Of a stretch of 64,000 bases of DNA, positions 2,077 through 11,300 are shown in pieces. Origin of the DNA: Mastigias papua. Its lineage: Eukaryota; Cnidaria; Scyphozoa; Rhizostomeae; Mastigiidae. How positions within the stretch are numbered: the stretch's first letter is position 1; each line of letters starts with the position of its first letter. Position numbers and translations under genes: made by a program. The notes beneath the pieces were generated by a model. It searched no databases, was not told the origin of the DNA, and saw only the letters and a program-made list of their open reading frames with translations. The stretch is from NCBI GenBank assembly GCA_964019165.1, contig OZ025267.1, positions 6,091,752 through 6,155,751 on the forward strand, written 5' to 3'.

Positions 2077-2361
2077 CCGCAATGAGGGTTGTTGAAAAGG
2101 GTGTGCATTCTTATAGAGGCAAAGAATTCCATTTAAAATTTCCTGTGGAAAAGAAAGAGAGAGAGGAAATTGACATGGCATCATCAAGCATTTCAAAAGA
2201 AGAGCCTGGAAATATTGTTGAAGTTCATGGTGATATCAATGGTTTGGGGAAGGAATCTCTTCAGATGTATCTGGAGAATACGAAACGATCTGGAGGTGGT
2301 GAAGTTGAAGAAGTGAATTTGGATGTTAGTCCACCTCAAGTTATTTTTCATGATGCCGAAG
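2077..2361 (+). CDS. Gene A array exon 1 (RRM back half + next RRM front half)
   Basis: A 285-nt exon, phase 1 at both ends, with acceptor ttttacag and donor at GAA G|gtaaat. It starts with an alpha2-beta4-like segment (MRVVEKGVHSYRGKEFHLKF), continues through an acidic linker, and ends with the beta1-beta3 segment containing NIVEVHGDINGLGKESL, YLENTKRSGGG and VIFHDAEG. The SGGG turn is typical of PARP10/PARP14 RRMs. The ATG at 2082 replaces the AAG/AGG codon of sibling exons and is probably an internal Met. Because the exon opens with half a domain, an upstream partner exon is expected. Confidence 0.85.
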
Positions 2362-5300
2362 GTAAATTGTGTCGTATGTTTTATGATGAAATGCAGTTAT
2401 GACATTTAATATTTGCTTGATATATGCTCCTGCTATCACAAAGTAGAGGATATTGATCTTTAACATTAAATGGCATTTGAATGTAAAGGCCTTTACTTAA
2501 GCTGCAAGTCAAATGTGGTCCCCTTTATAGGGAGTAAAACGATGACTAAGCTACCTTTCCAATGTGGCTGCCTCCAGAAGCGGAATTTGAATGATACGTA
2601 CGTGAATCATTATGGTATATTGTTGTATTGAACTATGAATGTGAGATAGCAATGCATTTGGAATTACGGACTGCAACTAAACCATGAAATTGGTATGGTA
2701 TATTTTGAAGTGTTCGTTGTATCAAAATATTTACCATCCGTGCTCTTACTACTTCACACAAGTCCATACCTATGGTACCAGTTAGGTTGGTATATTTCCA
2801 TAAGGTTTGCAGGAACCTACTGTTTATGTAGTGTGGTCAGTTTGATAATAGAACGATATGGTGTATTTATTAAAGTTGTTTGGAACAGTTTAGATAACAG
2901 CTTATCCTATCCCTATTGCATATATATTTGATTGTTTTACTAGCTGCAAGGAGTGTCGTTGAGAATAAGGTGCATACGTTCGAAGGCAAAGAGTTCCTGC
3001 TAAAATTTCCTGTACAAAGGAATGAAAGAGAGGGAGAGGAAGATGAGGCATCAAGAATTCCAAAATTGGAGCTTGGAAATATTGTTGAAGTTCATGGTGA
3101 TATCAAAGGTTTGGGGAAGGAGTCTCTTCAGATGTATCTGGAGAATACGAAACGATCTGGAGGTGGTGAAATTGAAAAACTGAATTTGGATGTTGCTCCA
3201 CCTCGAGTTACTTTTCGTGATGCCGAAGGTAAAGTGCCTTATCTTTTATGATGAAGTGTAGTAAATGTATGTGGTGTTAGTAGAAGATCTTTAACAGTTG
3301 ATGACGGTTTTATTGTAAAGCGTTGATTGCTTGATATTTTTGGGAATTAATTATCTATGATGTTGGTCGTTTTTTGTATGATATTATTGTATATTCGAAA
3401 AATTGACTTTAGTTTATTCAGAATTACATATGTGCTTTGGATGAGTATCTTCAAGGGAATAATGATTATCTCTAAATTCAGCTAGACACAGGAGTTGATT
3501 ATTGAGTAGGAATTACTAATGTTGAATTGACCATAGAAATAATCAGGTATATTTCGGAGTGCTCACTGTAACAATAGATTCTCATTCCTGCTGTACTCTG
3601 TCACGTACGTCCTTACCTACCGTGTCAATTACTCAAGCATTGTATCTTACAAGAAAGCTCGCAATAATCTATAATTACAGTTGTAAAGTGGTTTAACGTT
3701 GTTTGGAAATGAGTGTACAACTATGGGGGCATTCAAGCAATACGCCATGCAAATTTTGACAGATTCTGGCCCCCTCCCATCCCCATTGTCACGCACTATC
3801 ACAAAACCAGAATAAACTGACCCCCCACCGCTGCGTGACGTCACAAAATTTCATTTCGGAAATATGGAGATTTACATTGATAGGGGTCACTTTTTCAGAT
3901 TCTTCTGTACCAACAGGAATACGTTGGACGCCATAAATTGGCCCAGTTGCAGAGTTAGTTAGGCTAATAAAAGTATACCGTGTGCGGCAATTTTGGAAAT
4001 TTTGATTTTTCTACCAGCCTAAAGCAAATTTATATAAGTAGAGACAAACACAATGCCTGAAGATGGGATTTTTCAGAAAACTACGAACAGTTTGAACCAA
4101 GACATACTATATGGAACGTAATTTCAAACAACGAACACAAACAGGAACAAATCGAAATTTTAAGTCAATTCAGTCTGGTAATTTAGTCCTCGATGTTCTC
4201 CTATACGGGCATTCGATCATCTGCTGCAATTATTGGAGCACCAGCAAAGGAATTTCGTTGCCGAGGCACTTCCAACCCATCAATGTCAACATCGTCCATA
4301 TAGTCAAACATGGTTTAATATTATTTGATAGAAGTTTAAAGAGCATAAAAATACTTTTTAATTTGGATACATGATTCGACTAACTAAAATCCATCTTTAC
4401 TTGTTTAAAACTAAGAATACAAGCTAAAAACGGTTCTTGTTAGCGCAACGAGCTACTATCTTCATACCTCCAAAGAACATTCACCTTGAAGTTATCAAAA
4501 TTGCATGGAACCTTGAAAACAAAGTTGTTCACTTTCATGAAAGTTTAGAGGAATTTCAGAGTTTCATAAATAATTTTGAAGACAGTAAGAATAAAGTTTT
4601 CAGAGGGATCGGCAGCTCTGTAATGTTCAAAATCTTCAGAGCGTGACTTCACAATTCTCCAACAACCTCCCTCCCACCTGAACACCTGTCACACTCTGTC
4701 ACTACTTGGGTAGCCCCCCTCCCCCTAAAGACGTGACGTATGAATGGCCACTGTTTTATATCGAAATTCCAAATGTAATGATTAGATGTTTGTTTTTAGC
4801 TGCAAGGAGAGTCACTGAAAATAAAGTGCATATGTTTGATGGCAAAAAGTTCCTCTTAAAGTTTCCTGTGCAAAAGAATGAGAAGGTGGTAGAAGATGAT
4901 GAGTATTCAAGCGCTTCAAATGTGGTGCCTGAAAATATTGTTGAAATTCATGGTGATATCAAAGGTCTGGGGAAGGACTCTCTGGAGATGTATCTGGAGA
5001 ATACGAAACGATCTGGAGGTGGTGAAATTGAGATTTTAGATTTGGATGTTACTCCACCTCGAGTTATTTTTCGTGATGCCGAAGGTAAATTGCCTTATCT
5101 TTTATGATACGTGTAGTAGATGTATCTTGTGTTAGTTGAAGGTCTTATCAGTTGATGACGGTTGTATTATAAAGCGTTGATTGCTTGATAATTTTAGGAA
5201 TTAATTATCTATGATGGTGTTGGATTTTGTATGATATTATTGTATATTTGAAAAATTGACTTTAGTTTATTCAGAATTACATATATGCTTTGGATGAGTA

Positions 5301-8300: not shown

Positions 8301-11300
8301 ACCAAGTGGAAGGATCATTGATCCAGACTATGGTGAGTATATAATATGTACTTGAACAAAGTTGACCGAACTATGTTGTCCGGTTTATGCATTCATCCGG
8401 CTTAGGATATCTGGATAATGAGAATTATTTTAGTACATTTTCATAGGAAACTGATTGGACTTAGCAATTCTGTCCGGAATACACAAAATCCGGATAAAAC
8501 CGATCCGAAATATGCGAGGTTGAATGTACTTGTTGATAGGGGCTAGGGTAGTTGTGTGTACTTCTGTTTCACAATCGGATTGTTCACATTTCGAATTCCA
8601 CCCTGATACTTGACTCAGATTCAACCCAGGTTTGTGTCCACTTGGGAAAGCAAGCAGCTGGATGCTTTACTAAATTTGGGCTTTCTCATAGAATTAAGTT
8701 TTTTTTGTGCCCTGTGGACAAGTTATTTATAATTTGTGGCAATACTATTAGGGAATGAGAAGTTTCAAGCTTAAGGAAACTCTCACTGTGTAACGCCTGT
8801 TTGTAGTAGGCATACCACATTTGGGTCATATCTTAACCTAAAATCTCTCACTTTAGCAGCTGCTCGTGGAAGTTCGAAAGACAGTCATAGGCTCGATGGC
8901 ATTGATTTTAGACTGAAGAAGCCTAAAAGCGCCGTTTTTAGGGATGATGCTATAATGCTTTGTGACTTGCCGCCAGATACTTCAGAAGATTTGCTCAACA
9001 TGTATTTAGAGAGGCTGTGTGGCTCTGATCCTCACAGCATTGAAGCCAATCACGATAAATCAATGGTCATGGCTTCGTTTCCATGTAAAGTTGGTGAGAT
9101 AGATGTATTTACTTGGTTTCTTGTAGCAATTAATATGATCTATTTTTGCGCATGCGTAGATGTGCAAAGCGAGGAAATTTGTTGGCAATTCGCTCTATGA
9201 GAGGTATTTCAGTTTCTCAATCTTATGGGTTCGTTCATCGCCCAATAAGTGCTTGTTGAAGTACGTTATCTCTCTTGTGAAAGATCTTTTAATCAATGAT
9301 TCAGTGGTGGAAAATTCACACATTTTGACATAACATTAGGAATTCGACACATTTGCAATGCCAACTAGCAGAATGTGTCGGTTCATTGCTTCTTCCGTGA
9401 CAAGCAGCATTTGCTTCAAGTCTTAGAGGCTATGTTACTGTGGGCGTATGAAAGTATTGTATATCAAACTGTGGTATGTAGAACCCGAAACTTGTATTGT
9501 AGGTCTGCTGTTTATATCAACGGTTGAGTTTTGTAGGTGCATACGTTTAGTGTCTCTTTAGACTGCACTAACTAATCTCTCATGGCAGGATAATGTATTA
9601 AAAATTTAGTATATTATGGGATTTAATTCCCGTATATTTCAATCTACTAGAAGAAGCTTTAAGAAGTTGTCAAAGAGTATTGATTTTCAGAGATTTTTCT
9701 GTTTTAGACTGGAATCAAATTAGAGTGCAATATTTAAAGAAACCTACTCTTGATGGTGCTAAAATTGCTGTTGAACAGGTCTCTATTTGCCACTGTGCAT
9801 TTATAAGTAACATTCCTAACAGCGTCAGCACTGATTATCTTCAGTTAGCCATTGAGAAGCAATGCGGTAGTGATTGTGTAGAGGACCTGGATTATGAAAA
9901 AGGAAAAGAGTATGCATTCATTACATTCCGCAATCCAGAAGGTATTGGGCATATTTTCTGCTACCCACTACTTATACAAATTTTCTATTTATATTTCAAT
10001 ATTTTGTGGCAATTTTAATGGTCTCTCCCTATCTCTTGTTGACATAGTACTGGATCTTCCATTCGGCTATTTTGATCTATCACAGATATGGTAACGAACA
10101 TGACGATGCCTTAAGCGTATTTTCTCGAAAATATGCCACCTCTTGTGTTCCGTCTTGAATGAAGTTTTGCGGCCTAATTTTGGATCGGCGTATTTTTGAG
10201 GTTTTTTCTGTAAAGAGCCATGGAACAGCATGACACTCTTTGTTGTTTTCCTTTGTATTGTGTCCCATAAAAAGTCAGCTTTGTGCCATAATCGTAATGT
10301 CCGTTTGTGAAGCATGCAGAAATTCATCGATGAGATCTGAATCGGTTTATTTTGAAGGTCCGCTTATTTTTTGTGTTTGCTACATTATCACTGCCTGCTT
10401 TCCTACTTTCGAATTGGCTTATTATCAAAGGTCAACCAATTTCCACTTAAGTAAGGTATCTAATTTTTCGTACAGAGTAATGAGTTTGTATGCCACGAGG
10501 CCTATGCAGGTAAACCGTCGTGTACCATGCATTTGACTCATAGGTTTTGACTATGCATTTGCTGTAACAGCTTTATTTGCTTGCTTCTTTATTGTGACTC
10601 TCTGGACAGGCTGAATTTAGTCTGGAAATAGAACGAATGATAAGTCGTGACTCAGCAATTTATAGCAGGCTGTATCATTTCAGTCGATGATCGTTCTGCA
10701 CCGTCCGTACACTCAGCTGTTACATAACACATAACTGTTATATGCACATTGTTCTTGCCTCATGTCGTGTACTTTTCTATCCACAATTCTTGCGCAGTCA
10801 AAAGTGTCTAAGTAACTGAATGTTTCTTGTTCATCTGTGACTCAATATAAAGTAGATCACCTCTATCTTACCTTCATTTTTAGATGGCTCAGGATTGTTT
10901 TTCTTTTTTGCAGCTTTGCTCACTCTGACTAAACAGGGAATCAAATTTGAAGGAAAAGCTGTTGATGTTGAACAATACCATCCATCGTTTATCACAGGTT
11001 GGCTGCTCTTTTGCTTAATTTCTACCCTGTCTGTTATCAACAGGTGCGATTAGATATGCGTTAATATCGAATGGAATTGTGCTCCCCACTTGCCACAAAT
11101 TATGCAAGGCATAAGTTTTTATACTTATAAGAGTTGCCTTTAGCCCCTTAGTTGAATTGTATTGTGCAAGATATGGCCTGTGAAGAGTTGAAGGGCACAT
11201 TGAATTGCACAATGGATTGCATTGGAAAGTAGAAGTCATCATTGATTTCAAGAGGGCATATAGATCGTCAGGTGGACTGACCTTATGGCAACAATCTTTC

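What the first reader, a model, noticed from the sequence alone, without database searches (positions are those of the whole stretch)
2077..10997. RRM array built from permuted, phase-symmetric exons
Each array exon ends after beta3 of one RRM-like fold and starts with alpha2 of the previous one. Borders are all phase 1-1 and most exons are exactly 285 nt. Because the cut lies inside the domain at the same point every time, duplication, deletion or skipping of any exon still leaves whole RRMs. This looks like a ready-made system for changing RRM number by recombination or splicing in a PARP14-like protein. The exon borders are read directly; the fold boundary is inferred from RRM topology.
Basis: partly seen in the sequence, partly recalled or inferred. 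Interest (0 to 1): 0.88.

Follow-up and report, generated by a model that had tools for sequence, protein, structure and literature searches.

The report
Permuted RRM exons in PARP14 genes
A cluster of PARP14-like genes, likely from an animal, carries repeated exons that each hold the predicted end of one RRM (RNA-recognition-type) module and the predicted start of the next, so gaining or losing an exon would change the number of modules without breaking one, and the neighbouring gene copies do differ in how many such exons they have.

Summary
The exons at 2077-10997 have AG/GT borders, phase 1-1, and cut a PARP14-type RRM at the beta3/alpha2 boundary: a profile of junction-spanning pieces matches the solved PARP10 RRM (2DHX) at E 4e-8, while the exon-frame profile matches it only in pieces, in swapped order. 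AlphaFold2 of a relative with six such repeats puts an RRM across each expected border; a single exon makes no whole RRM. The genome holds at least five tandem paralogs (a second one in the window, 42018-64000). All 24 full array exons delimited are phase 1-1 at the same codon; 13 are 285 nt. Tandem-type exon number differs (3, 5, 5, 2, and 1 plus a truncated one), gene 1 lacks a whole exon type, a two-exon block was most simply duplicated in gene 1, and intron 2 is a sharp mosaic of two other introns. Recombination changing RRM number is supported; alternative splicing is untested. 'Any exon' is too strong, since end exons carry half domains. A second assembly holds array exons with no close match here, hinting at polymorphism. 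Precedents exist (NLRP3, nebulin, JAG1): a new variant of a known kind. The array RRMs lack RNP1 aromatics, so canonical RNA binding is doubtful.

The parts
2077..2361 (+). Gene 1 array exon E1 (=B1), 285 nt, phase 1-1
2944..3228 (+). Gene 1 array exon E2 (=B2), 285 nt, phase 1-1
3229..4799 (+). Intron 2: 5' part like intron 3, 3' part like intron 4; about 1 kb inserted at 3726-4751
4800..5084 (+). Gene 1 array exon E3 (=B3), 285 nt, phase 1-1
5663..5929 (+). Gene 1 array exon E4 (=B4), 267 nt, phase 1-1; pairs with E2
6480..6764 (+). Gene 1 array exon E5 (=B5), 285 nt, phase 1-1; pairs with E3
8860..9093 (+). Array exon E6, 234 nt, phase 1-1, older type
9708..9941 (+). Array exon E7, 234 nt, phase 1-1; its beta3 reads KEYAFITF (RNP1-like)
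10914..10997 (+). End exon E8, 84 nt, phase 1-1: alpha2-beta4 half only, closes the last RRM
11886..14095 (+). Large exon with Macro domain and weak KH matches; array reads into it in phase 1
17417..19120 (+). Open frame with two further Macro-domain stretches of gene 1 (frame span, not exact exon)
19721..20320 (+). Open frame holding the first part of the PARP catalytic domain of gene 1
24956..25255 (+). Open frame holding the last part of the PARP catalytic domain of gene 1
42018..42345 (+). Gene 2 N-terminal exon: ATG, RRM-like first half, leaves in phase 1
46398..46590 (+). Gene 2 exon type x: first beta1-beta3 half only; 5' border uncertain
48134..48388 (+). Gene 2 array exon type y (F0), 255 nt, phase 1-1
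49184..49444 (+). Gene 2 array exon type z (F1), 261 nt, phase 1-1
50351..50635 (+). Gene 2 array exon F2 (C1), 285 nt, phase 1-1
51799..52083 (+). Gene 2 array exon F3 (C2), 285 nt, phase 1-1
52738..53022 (+). Gene 2 array exon F4 (C3), 285 nt, phase 1-1
53532..53810 (+). Gene 2 array exon F5 (C4), 279 nt, phase 1-1
54582..54866 (+). Gene 2 array exon F6 (C5), 285 nt, phase 1-1
55398..55634 (+). Gene 2 exon F7 (E6 type), 237 nt
56977..57210 (+). Gene 2 exon F8 (E7 type), 234 nt
58209..58292 (+). Gene 2 end exon F9 (E8 type), 84 nt: alpha2-beta4 half
59661..61800 (+). Gene 2 large exon, homologous to the KH/Macro exon of gene 1 (3' border not fixed)

Best explanation
Gene 1 and its tandem neighbours carry runs of exons that all begin and end at the same codon inside a predicted RRM fold, and the number of these exons differs between the neighbouring genes, likely because recombination between similar introns copies or removes whole exons, so that every remaining exon junction would still build a complete RRM. 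Each full array exon encodes alpha2-beta4-linker-beta1-alpha1-beta2-beta3. A 5' exon (x) gives the first beta1-beta3 half and an 84-nt exon gives the last alpha2-beta4 half, so n exons between them give n+1 RRMs. Shown from DNA: border dinucleotides and reading phases, copy numbers, pairing of the two-exon blocks, the intron mosaic, and absence of one exon type in gene 1. Predicted: the splicing (no RNA from this species) and the fold across each junction. Inferred: intron recombination (unequal crossing over, with or without gene conversion) as the cause, and that RRM number tunes partner binding of a PARP14-like, probably antiviral, protein.
For: Borders: 24 of 24 full array exons in five paralogs have AG/GT, length divisible by 3, and the same border codon. 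Fold frame: the profile of 11 junction-spanning pieces hits 2DHX (human PARP10 RRM) at E 4e-8 over positions 4-72, with the border at about 51/52; the exon-frame profile hits it at E 1.3e-3, in two pieces in swapped order, 46-77 to chain 9-40 and 2-21 to chain 60-79, the second piece at only -0.2 bits. 10 of 10 exons tested alone score lower in Pfam than the junction-spanning piece that begins in the same exon. Relative P0001: six 93-aa repeats, 86-93 of 93 identical, in the exon frame; its model shows six RRMs, block pLDDT mostly above 90 in five and 71-88 in the fifth, the expected border 4-5 residues after beta3 at the start of alpha2, and low-confidence linkers at 0.35-0.40 of the repeat; its top-ranked PDB matches are multi-RRM proteins. 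Single-exon model: pLDDT 68, no alpha2 helix, no PDB match at E<=0.001. Relative P0002 (1776 aa on a 5,989-base contig, read by eye) runs uninterrupted across the points E5|E6, E6|E7, E7|E8, E8|E9. Number change: tandem-type exons A 3, B 5, C 5, D 2, E 1 plus one truncated; pairs (B2,B4), (B3,B5) with A3 outside the latter; no trace of exon z in gene B. Recombination: in its 5' part intron 2 agrees with intron 3 alone at 101 sites and with intron 4 alone at 12 (introns 3 and 4 against it: 9); in its 3' part 9, 58 and 6; incompatibility test on introns 1-4, and on exon plus downstream intron of E1-E4, 0 of 2000 permutations each at three window sizes; A/B tract ending in intron y-z.
Against: No transcript of this species. 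Recombination inside exons is not supported (permutation fractions 0.20 and 0.06 for A+B exons, 0.73 and 0.84 for C with D2 and E2, 0.03 and 0.37 for all). Gene conversion could make the intron mosaic without changing exon number. One array exon of gene E has lost its 5' half, so not every event respects the border. The P0001 model has low overall pTM (0.30) and its real exon borders are unknown. The exon trees are weakly resolved: 5 of 15 inner branches starred, 1 of 9. The best-ranked (not significant, E 2.3) PDB match of the single-exon model is 2DHX over 48 columns, so part of the RRM does form inside one exon.
Confidence: 0.85

Rival explanations
1. A frozen accident: an old intron happened to sit between beta3 and alpha2, only whole-exon changes survive selection against frameshift, and the array drifts in length without a benefit. 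The anatomy is the same but it is no 'system'.
For: Phase 1-1 in all copies can be inherited from one founder exon; whole-exon pairwise dN/dS is 0.4-0.8 among E1-E5 and 0.2-0.9 among F2-F6, none above 1 (a few half-exon values exceed 1 on very small dS); gene E holds a decayed exon.
Against: Changes in several paralogs and another lineage with six near-identical repeats in the same frame suggest continued turnover, but do not prove benefit.
Confidence: 0.5
2. Gene conversion between introns and exons, rather than unequal crossing over, made the mosaic intron and the similar copies; number rarely changes.
For: Sharp switch inside intron 2; genes A and B share a 5' tract at 90-96% while the aligned rest of the genes is at 66-91%.
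Against: Numbers do differ between paralogs and gene B has two copies of a two-exon block; conversion alone cannot add exons.
Confidence: 0.3
3. Array exons are skipped or chosen by regulated splicing, giving isoforms with different RRM number.
For: All 24 full array exons are frame-neutral; NLRP3 shows this with 171-bp LRR exons (PMC6642158).
Against: No RNA evidence at all; end exons E8 and x are not skippable without breaking a domain.
Confidence: 0.15
4. Each exon folds by itself as a circularly permuted RRM, so exon and domain coincide after all.
For: Beta4 and beta1 are sheet neighbours in an RRM (general knowledge), so a permuted fold is topologically possible; the single-exon model does form beta stretches and one helix.
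Against: The single-exon model forms no alpha2 and matches nothing at E<=0.001; half-domain end exons E8 and x would be orphaned; profiles run through the junction.
Confidence: 0.04
5. Assembly artefact.
For: Tandem near-repeats and (TA)n tracts can mislead assemblers.
Against: Copies within gene 1 differ by 10-22% in DNA; a contig from another source (902,321 bases) carries ORFs that match exons of A, B, C and D at about 92-100% (16 of its 19 exon ORFs); paralogs repeat the design.
Confidence: 0.02

Closest known systems
LRR exons of NLRP genes (NLRP3; Hoss et al. 2019, PMC6642158; one section and passages read)
   Same: Exons of constant length (171 bp), frame-neutral, with every border at the same place inside the repeat's beta-sheet, in an innate-immunity protein; exon loss is expected to keep the fold
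   Different: Open-ended LRR solenoid, not a closed globular RRM cut in two; alternative splicing shown there, not here; number differences between tandem gene copies shown here
Nebulin repeats (Bjorklund et al. 2006, PMC1553488; passages read)
   Same: Exon borders all inside the domains, blocks of exons duplicated
   Different: Four exons to seven repeats; not one exon to one permuted globular domain
JAG1 exons 5 and 6 (PMC2725086; abstract and passages read)
   Same: Exons out of phase with domain borders, conserved
   Different: Two EGF repeats, no array expansion; there the exon itself is an autonomous structural unit
Potato type II inhibitors (PMC2259423; search listing only)
   Same: Title and listing name tandem duplication with circular permutation
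   Different: Plant inhibitors; exon borders not compared here
Vertebrate PARP14 (review PMC13224862; passages read)
   Same: RRMs, KH, macrodomains and ART domain; tandem gene duplicates common
   Different: Three RRMs in the human protein against a predicted 7-10 here; the RRM exon borders of human PARP14 were not checked

Membership tests
PARP14-like proteins | PARP14-type RRMs | tested here: met
   RRM_PARP14_3 141 bits, 6 stretches; RRM_PARP14_1 110 bits, 4 stretches
PARP14-like proteins | Macro domains | tested here: met
   E 6e-32 in the big exon, E 3e-22 with two stretches at 17417-19117
PARP14-like proteins | KH domains | tested here: inconclusive
   KH_SLS1_1 27.3 bits (cut-off 24.1); KH_PARP14_8 17.7 bits, below its cut-off 27
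PARP14-like proteins | WWE domain | tested here: inconclusive
   No WWE match in the piece scanned (17417-19117); a WWE-like stretch there is by eye only
PARP14-like proteins | PARP catalytic domain | tested here: met
   Two exon pieces, E 2e-9 and 2e-8
PARP14-like proteins | ADP-ribosyl transferase activity, antiviral role | not testable with these tools
   No experiment
Canonical RNA-binding RRM | Aromatic residues at RNP1 positions 3 and 5 | tested here: not met
   1 of 48 positions in 24 array exons (motif recalled). E7, outside that count, reads KEYAFITF
Canonical RNA-binding RRM | RRM fold, beta1-alpha1-beta2-beta3-alpha2-beta4 | tested here: met
   2DHX profile match; model of relative P0001; not of the window protein itself
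Symmetric 1-1 exon module | Phase 1 at both ends, length divisible by 3 | tested here: met
   24 of 24
Symmetric 1-1 exon module | Exon borders coincide with domain borders | tested here: not met
   Cut at beta3/alpha2
NLRP-type exon-modular repeat | Exons skipped in real transcripts | not testable with these tools
   No RNA of this species

The most novel reading that the evidence does not exclude
The permuted border makes this a half-domain shuffling device: every gain, loss or crossover joins the beta1-beta3 half of one copy to the alpha2-beta4 half of another, so individuals carry PARP14-like proteins with different numbers and hybrid kinds of RRM, generated continually in a tandem gene cluster as a fast-changing antiviral recognition surface. 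A hint: a second assembly of the same or a nearly identical species has, on one contig, both a z exon matching gene A's (122 of 123) and a second z-like exon (P0091) whose best match in the window's whole genome is only 89%, as if its gene B kept the z exon that is missing here, plus two array exons (P0104, P0108) with best local matches of 58% and 70%.
Probability: 0.2. Interest if true: 0.85.

Novelty: new variant of a known kind. Interest (0 to 1): 0.6.

Why it matters
It is a clear case in which a closed globular domain, cut at one fixed point by introns, has become a countable unit: exon number can change while the fold would stay whole. Five tandem paralogs with different counts, still-alignable introns and a recognisable block duplication make it possible to test how domain number evolves, exon by exon, in a family of antiviral ADP-ribosyl transferases whose RRMs are largely uncharacterised.

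Tried and rejected
Whole RRM inside one exon: rejected on model, profile and end-exon evidence. Recombination inside exons: suggested by lower synonymous divergence in the second half of A and B exons (12 of 13 within-gene pairs), but the incompatibility test on exons does not support it and C2-C5 mostly show the reverse (5 of 6 pairs), so dropped. The unit-level test used the same intron twice (downstream of one unit, upstream of the next); it was replaced by the cleaner one, same outcome. Gene 1 starting at the ATG inside E1: rejected, since exons x and y and an N-terminal exon with ATG lie upstream of the window. Searches of the prokaryote genome set and of viral contigs with the big exon found no relatives, as expected for an animal-like gene. 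Not in print: none of the literature searches listed a permuted RRM exon array; only the listed top rows were seen and the library lacks most subscription journals. Species: not identified. On re-reading, the second-assembly exons were added and the odds of the novel case raised from 0.15 to 0.2.

Subsets used: one search took 21 of the 61 hits; the single-exon fold took 25 rows, leaving out 4 of the 29 rows (one because its first codon was printed as M); one search took 10 and one search took 11 of the 17 junction pieces; one search compared the 14 hits; one search took all 56 distinct hits; one search compared all 19 exon ORFs of the 902,321-base contig, P0047, and 14 others.

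
Full report
Observation. E1-E3 and E5 are 285 nt, E4 267, E6 and E7 234, E8 84. Every one enters and leaves in phase 1 and the spliced frame is open into a 2.2-kb exon with a Macro domain. The window holds a second, paralogous gene from 42018 to beyond its end, with the same design, which the finding does not mention.

Where the cut lies. On the spliced array Pfam finds RRM_PARP14_3 (141 bits, six stretches) and RRM_PARP14_1 (110 bits, four stretches). Ten exons scanned alone score lower, 10 of 10, than the junction-spanning piece that begins in the same exon; for E7 the score rises from 26.7 bits (profile 3-52 of 82) to 44.5 bits (3-77 of 82) when E8 is added. 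A profile of 11 junction-spanning pieces hits the solved RRM of human PARP10 (2DHX) with E 4e-8, colinear over positions 4-72, while the exon-frame profile hits the same chain at E 1.3e-3 as two pieces in swapped order, the second very weak (-0.2 bits). So the exon is a circular permutation of the domain, cut at beta3/alpha2.

Structure. It carries six 93-residue repeats, 86-93 of 93 identical, and the first repeat starts at alpha2, the same frame as the exons here. Its model, built on 21 sequences, has overall pTM 0.30 and low confidence outside the array, but six well-defined RRMs (the fifth less so, block pLDDT 71-88); each expected border falls 4-5 residues after beta3, within the first residues of alpha2, where block pLDDT is 86-96, and the low-confidence linkers lie at 0.35-0.40 of the repeat, that is inside the exon. 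The top-ranked PDB matches are multi-RRM proteins; 2DHX is among the 50 listed. A single exon, folded with 25 sequences, reaches pLDDT 68, shows no alpha2, and matches nothing at E<=0.001; its best-ranked match is part of 2DHX at E 2.3.

End exons. The array is closed by an 84-nt exon that holds only alpha2-beta4, found in genes A, B and C with AG/GT borders and in D by eye, and opened by an exon (x) that holds only a beta1-beta3 half. Thus n full exons between them give n+1 RRMs. By this count genes A, B, C and D would have 8, 9, 10 and 7 RRMs, not counting the N-terminal RRM-like piece. Skipping x or E8 would leave half a domain, so 'any exon' in the finding is too strong, and every new junction makes a hybrid RRM.

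The cluster. The window lies at C1:6091752-6155751 of a 346.8-Mb genome; an array-exon query hits 24 places, all on C1 between 6.019 and 6.278 Mb, and a second query 25 places in the same stretch; both are lower bounds. From 264 kb of DNA plus loci of a fifth gene, five tandem PARP14-like genes were read: A, B (gene 1), C (gene 2), D, and part of E. A-D each have an N-terminal exon, the big exon and a catalytic exon in that stretch. 24 full array exons were delimited; 24 of 24 have AG and GT, are divisible by 3, and end on the same G; 13 are 285 nt and the others differ by multiples of 3. Not in that count: four x-type exons, the E6, E7 and E8 types, and one exon of gene E whose 5' half is missing. 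Tandem-type exons number 3, 5, 5, 2 and 1 (plus the truncated one). Exon z is absent from gene B: no trace at E<=1 in the intron, although its flank aligns.

How the number changed. In the tree of 18 exons, A1 pairs with B1 (100/100), B2 with B4 (96/96), B3 with B5 (99/96), and A3 lies outside B3+B5 (86/81); 5 of 15 inner branches are starred. The simplest reading is a duplication of a two-exon block with its intron in gene B after the A/B split. Introns align between copies within an array well beyond the exons. In the first 355 columns intron 2 agrees with intron 3 alone at 101 sites, with intron 4 alone at 12, and the two agree against it at 9; in the rest the counts are 9, 58 and 6. The incompatibility test on introns 1-4, and on exon plus downstream intron of E1-E4, gives 0 of 2000 permutations as low at each of three window sizes; on exons alone it is not significant for A+B or C, and 0.03 or 0.37 for all exons by window size. 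Genes A and B are 90-96% identical over about 7.6 kb at their 5' ends (with small gaps), up to a point inside the intron between exons y and z, and 66-91% in the aligned parts beyond. Recombination with breakpoints in array introns is therefore supported; crossing over and conversion are not told apart.

Other genomes. The intronless relative P0002 (1776 aa on a 5,989-base contig) runs across the junction points E5|E6 to E8|E9 at the residues predicted here (read by eye). Of 56 database ORFs found with two exon-type queries, 55 continue after the exon's last residue with Gly, as a phase-1 GT donor read through would give; the exception, P0103, continues straight into alpha2, as a spliced sequence would. 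Two other contigs carry 9 and 10 such ORFs. These ORFs come without names of organism. One contig of 902,321 bases is of the same or a nearly identical species: 16 of its 19 exon ORFs match the cluster at about 92-100% over the ORF (P0063, the E5-like one, lowest, 111 of 121). Three do not: P0091 (z-like, 89% to gene A's z, while P0088 on the same contig matches that exon at 122 of 123), P0104 (best local match 58%) and P0108 (70%). P0091 was searched against the whole own genome with the same result. Exon content may thus differ between individuals, but an unread paralog or gene E beyond the fetched loci could explain P0104 and P0108.

Function. The array RRMs lack RNP1 aromatics (1 of 48 positions), unlike E7 (KEYAFITF). 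Canonical RNA binding by the array is thus doubtful; protein binding is as likely. PARP14 is described as an antiviral enzyme with frequent tandem duplicates, also in lancelet and sponge (PMC13224862 and PMC4245714, passages read); a role of RRM number in that context is inference.

Precedents. [quoted passage not shown]), nebulin (borders inside domains) and JAG1 (exons out of phase) share the principle. Nothing listed describes it for RRMs or PARP14. Verdict: real, well supported in anatomy, a new variant of a known kind; the splicing part remains open.

Noticed in passing
window 3726-4751: About 1 kb inserted in intron 2, absent from the matching intron 4; its two ends look like weak inverted repeats by eye, possibly a small transposon.
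   Followed up: partly
P0063 against window 6480-6764: On the 902,321-base contig of a second assembly the E5-like exon has 88 of 95 identical residues, while the other exons compared from that contig differ at 0-2 residues: divergent allele or an extra copy.
   Followed up: partly
P0091, P0104, P0108 (902,321-base contig): Three array-exon ORFs of the second assembly lack a close counterpart in the fetched cluster (89%, 58%, 70%); P0091 may be a gene B z exon lost in the window's genome.
   Followed up: partly
genome C1:6012196-6019975 and 6081638-6089251: The 5' ends of genes A and B are 90-96% identical over about 7.6 kb, more than most of the rest of the genes; the tract stops in an array intron.
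   Followed up: partly
array exons of genes A and B: Synonymous divergence is lower in the second half of the exon (beta1-beta3) in 12 of 13 within-gene pairs, but C2-C5 show the opposite in 5 of 6 pairs; no explanation found.
   Followed up: partly
genome C1:6277148-6277267 (gene E): An array exon that has lost its alpha2-beta4-beta1 part; a phase-1 AG lies right before the remainder, so it may be a decayed or odd exon.
   Followed up: no
window 435-956: Two adjoining open frames (104 and 68 aa) in the intron upstream of E1; the first (the only one scanned) has no Pfam match; possibly a broken mobile-element gene.
   Followed up: no
window 1849-2024, about 14580-14690, 47080-47250, 57370-57720: Long (TA)n-type tracts near array exons and inside the two genes.
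   Followed up: no
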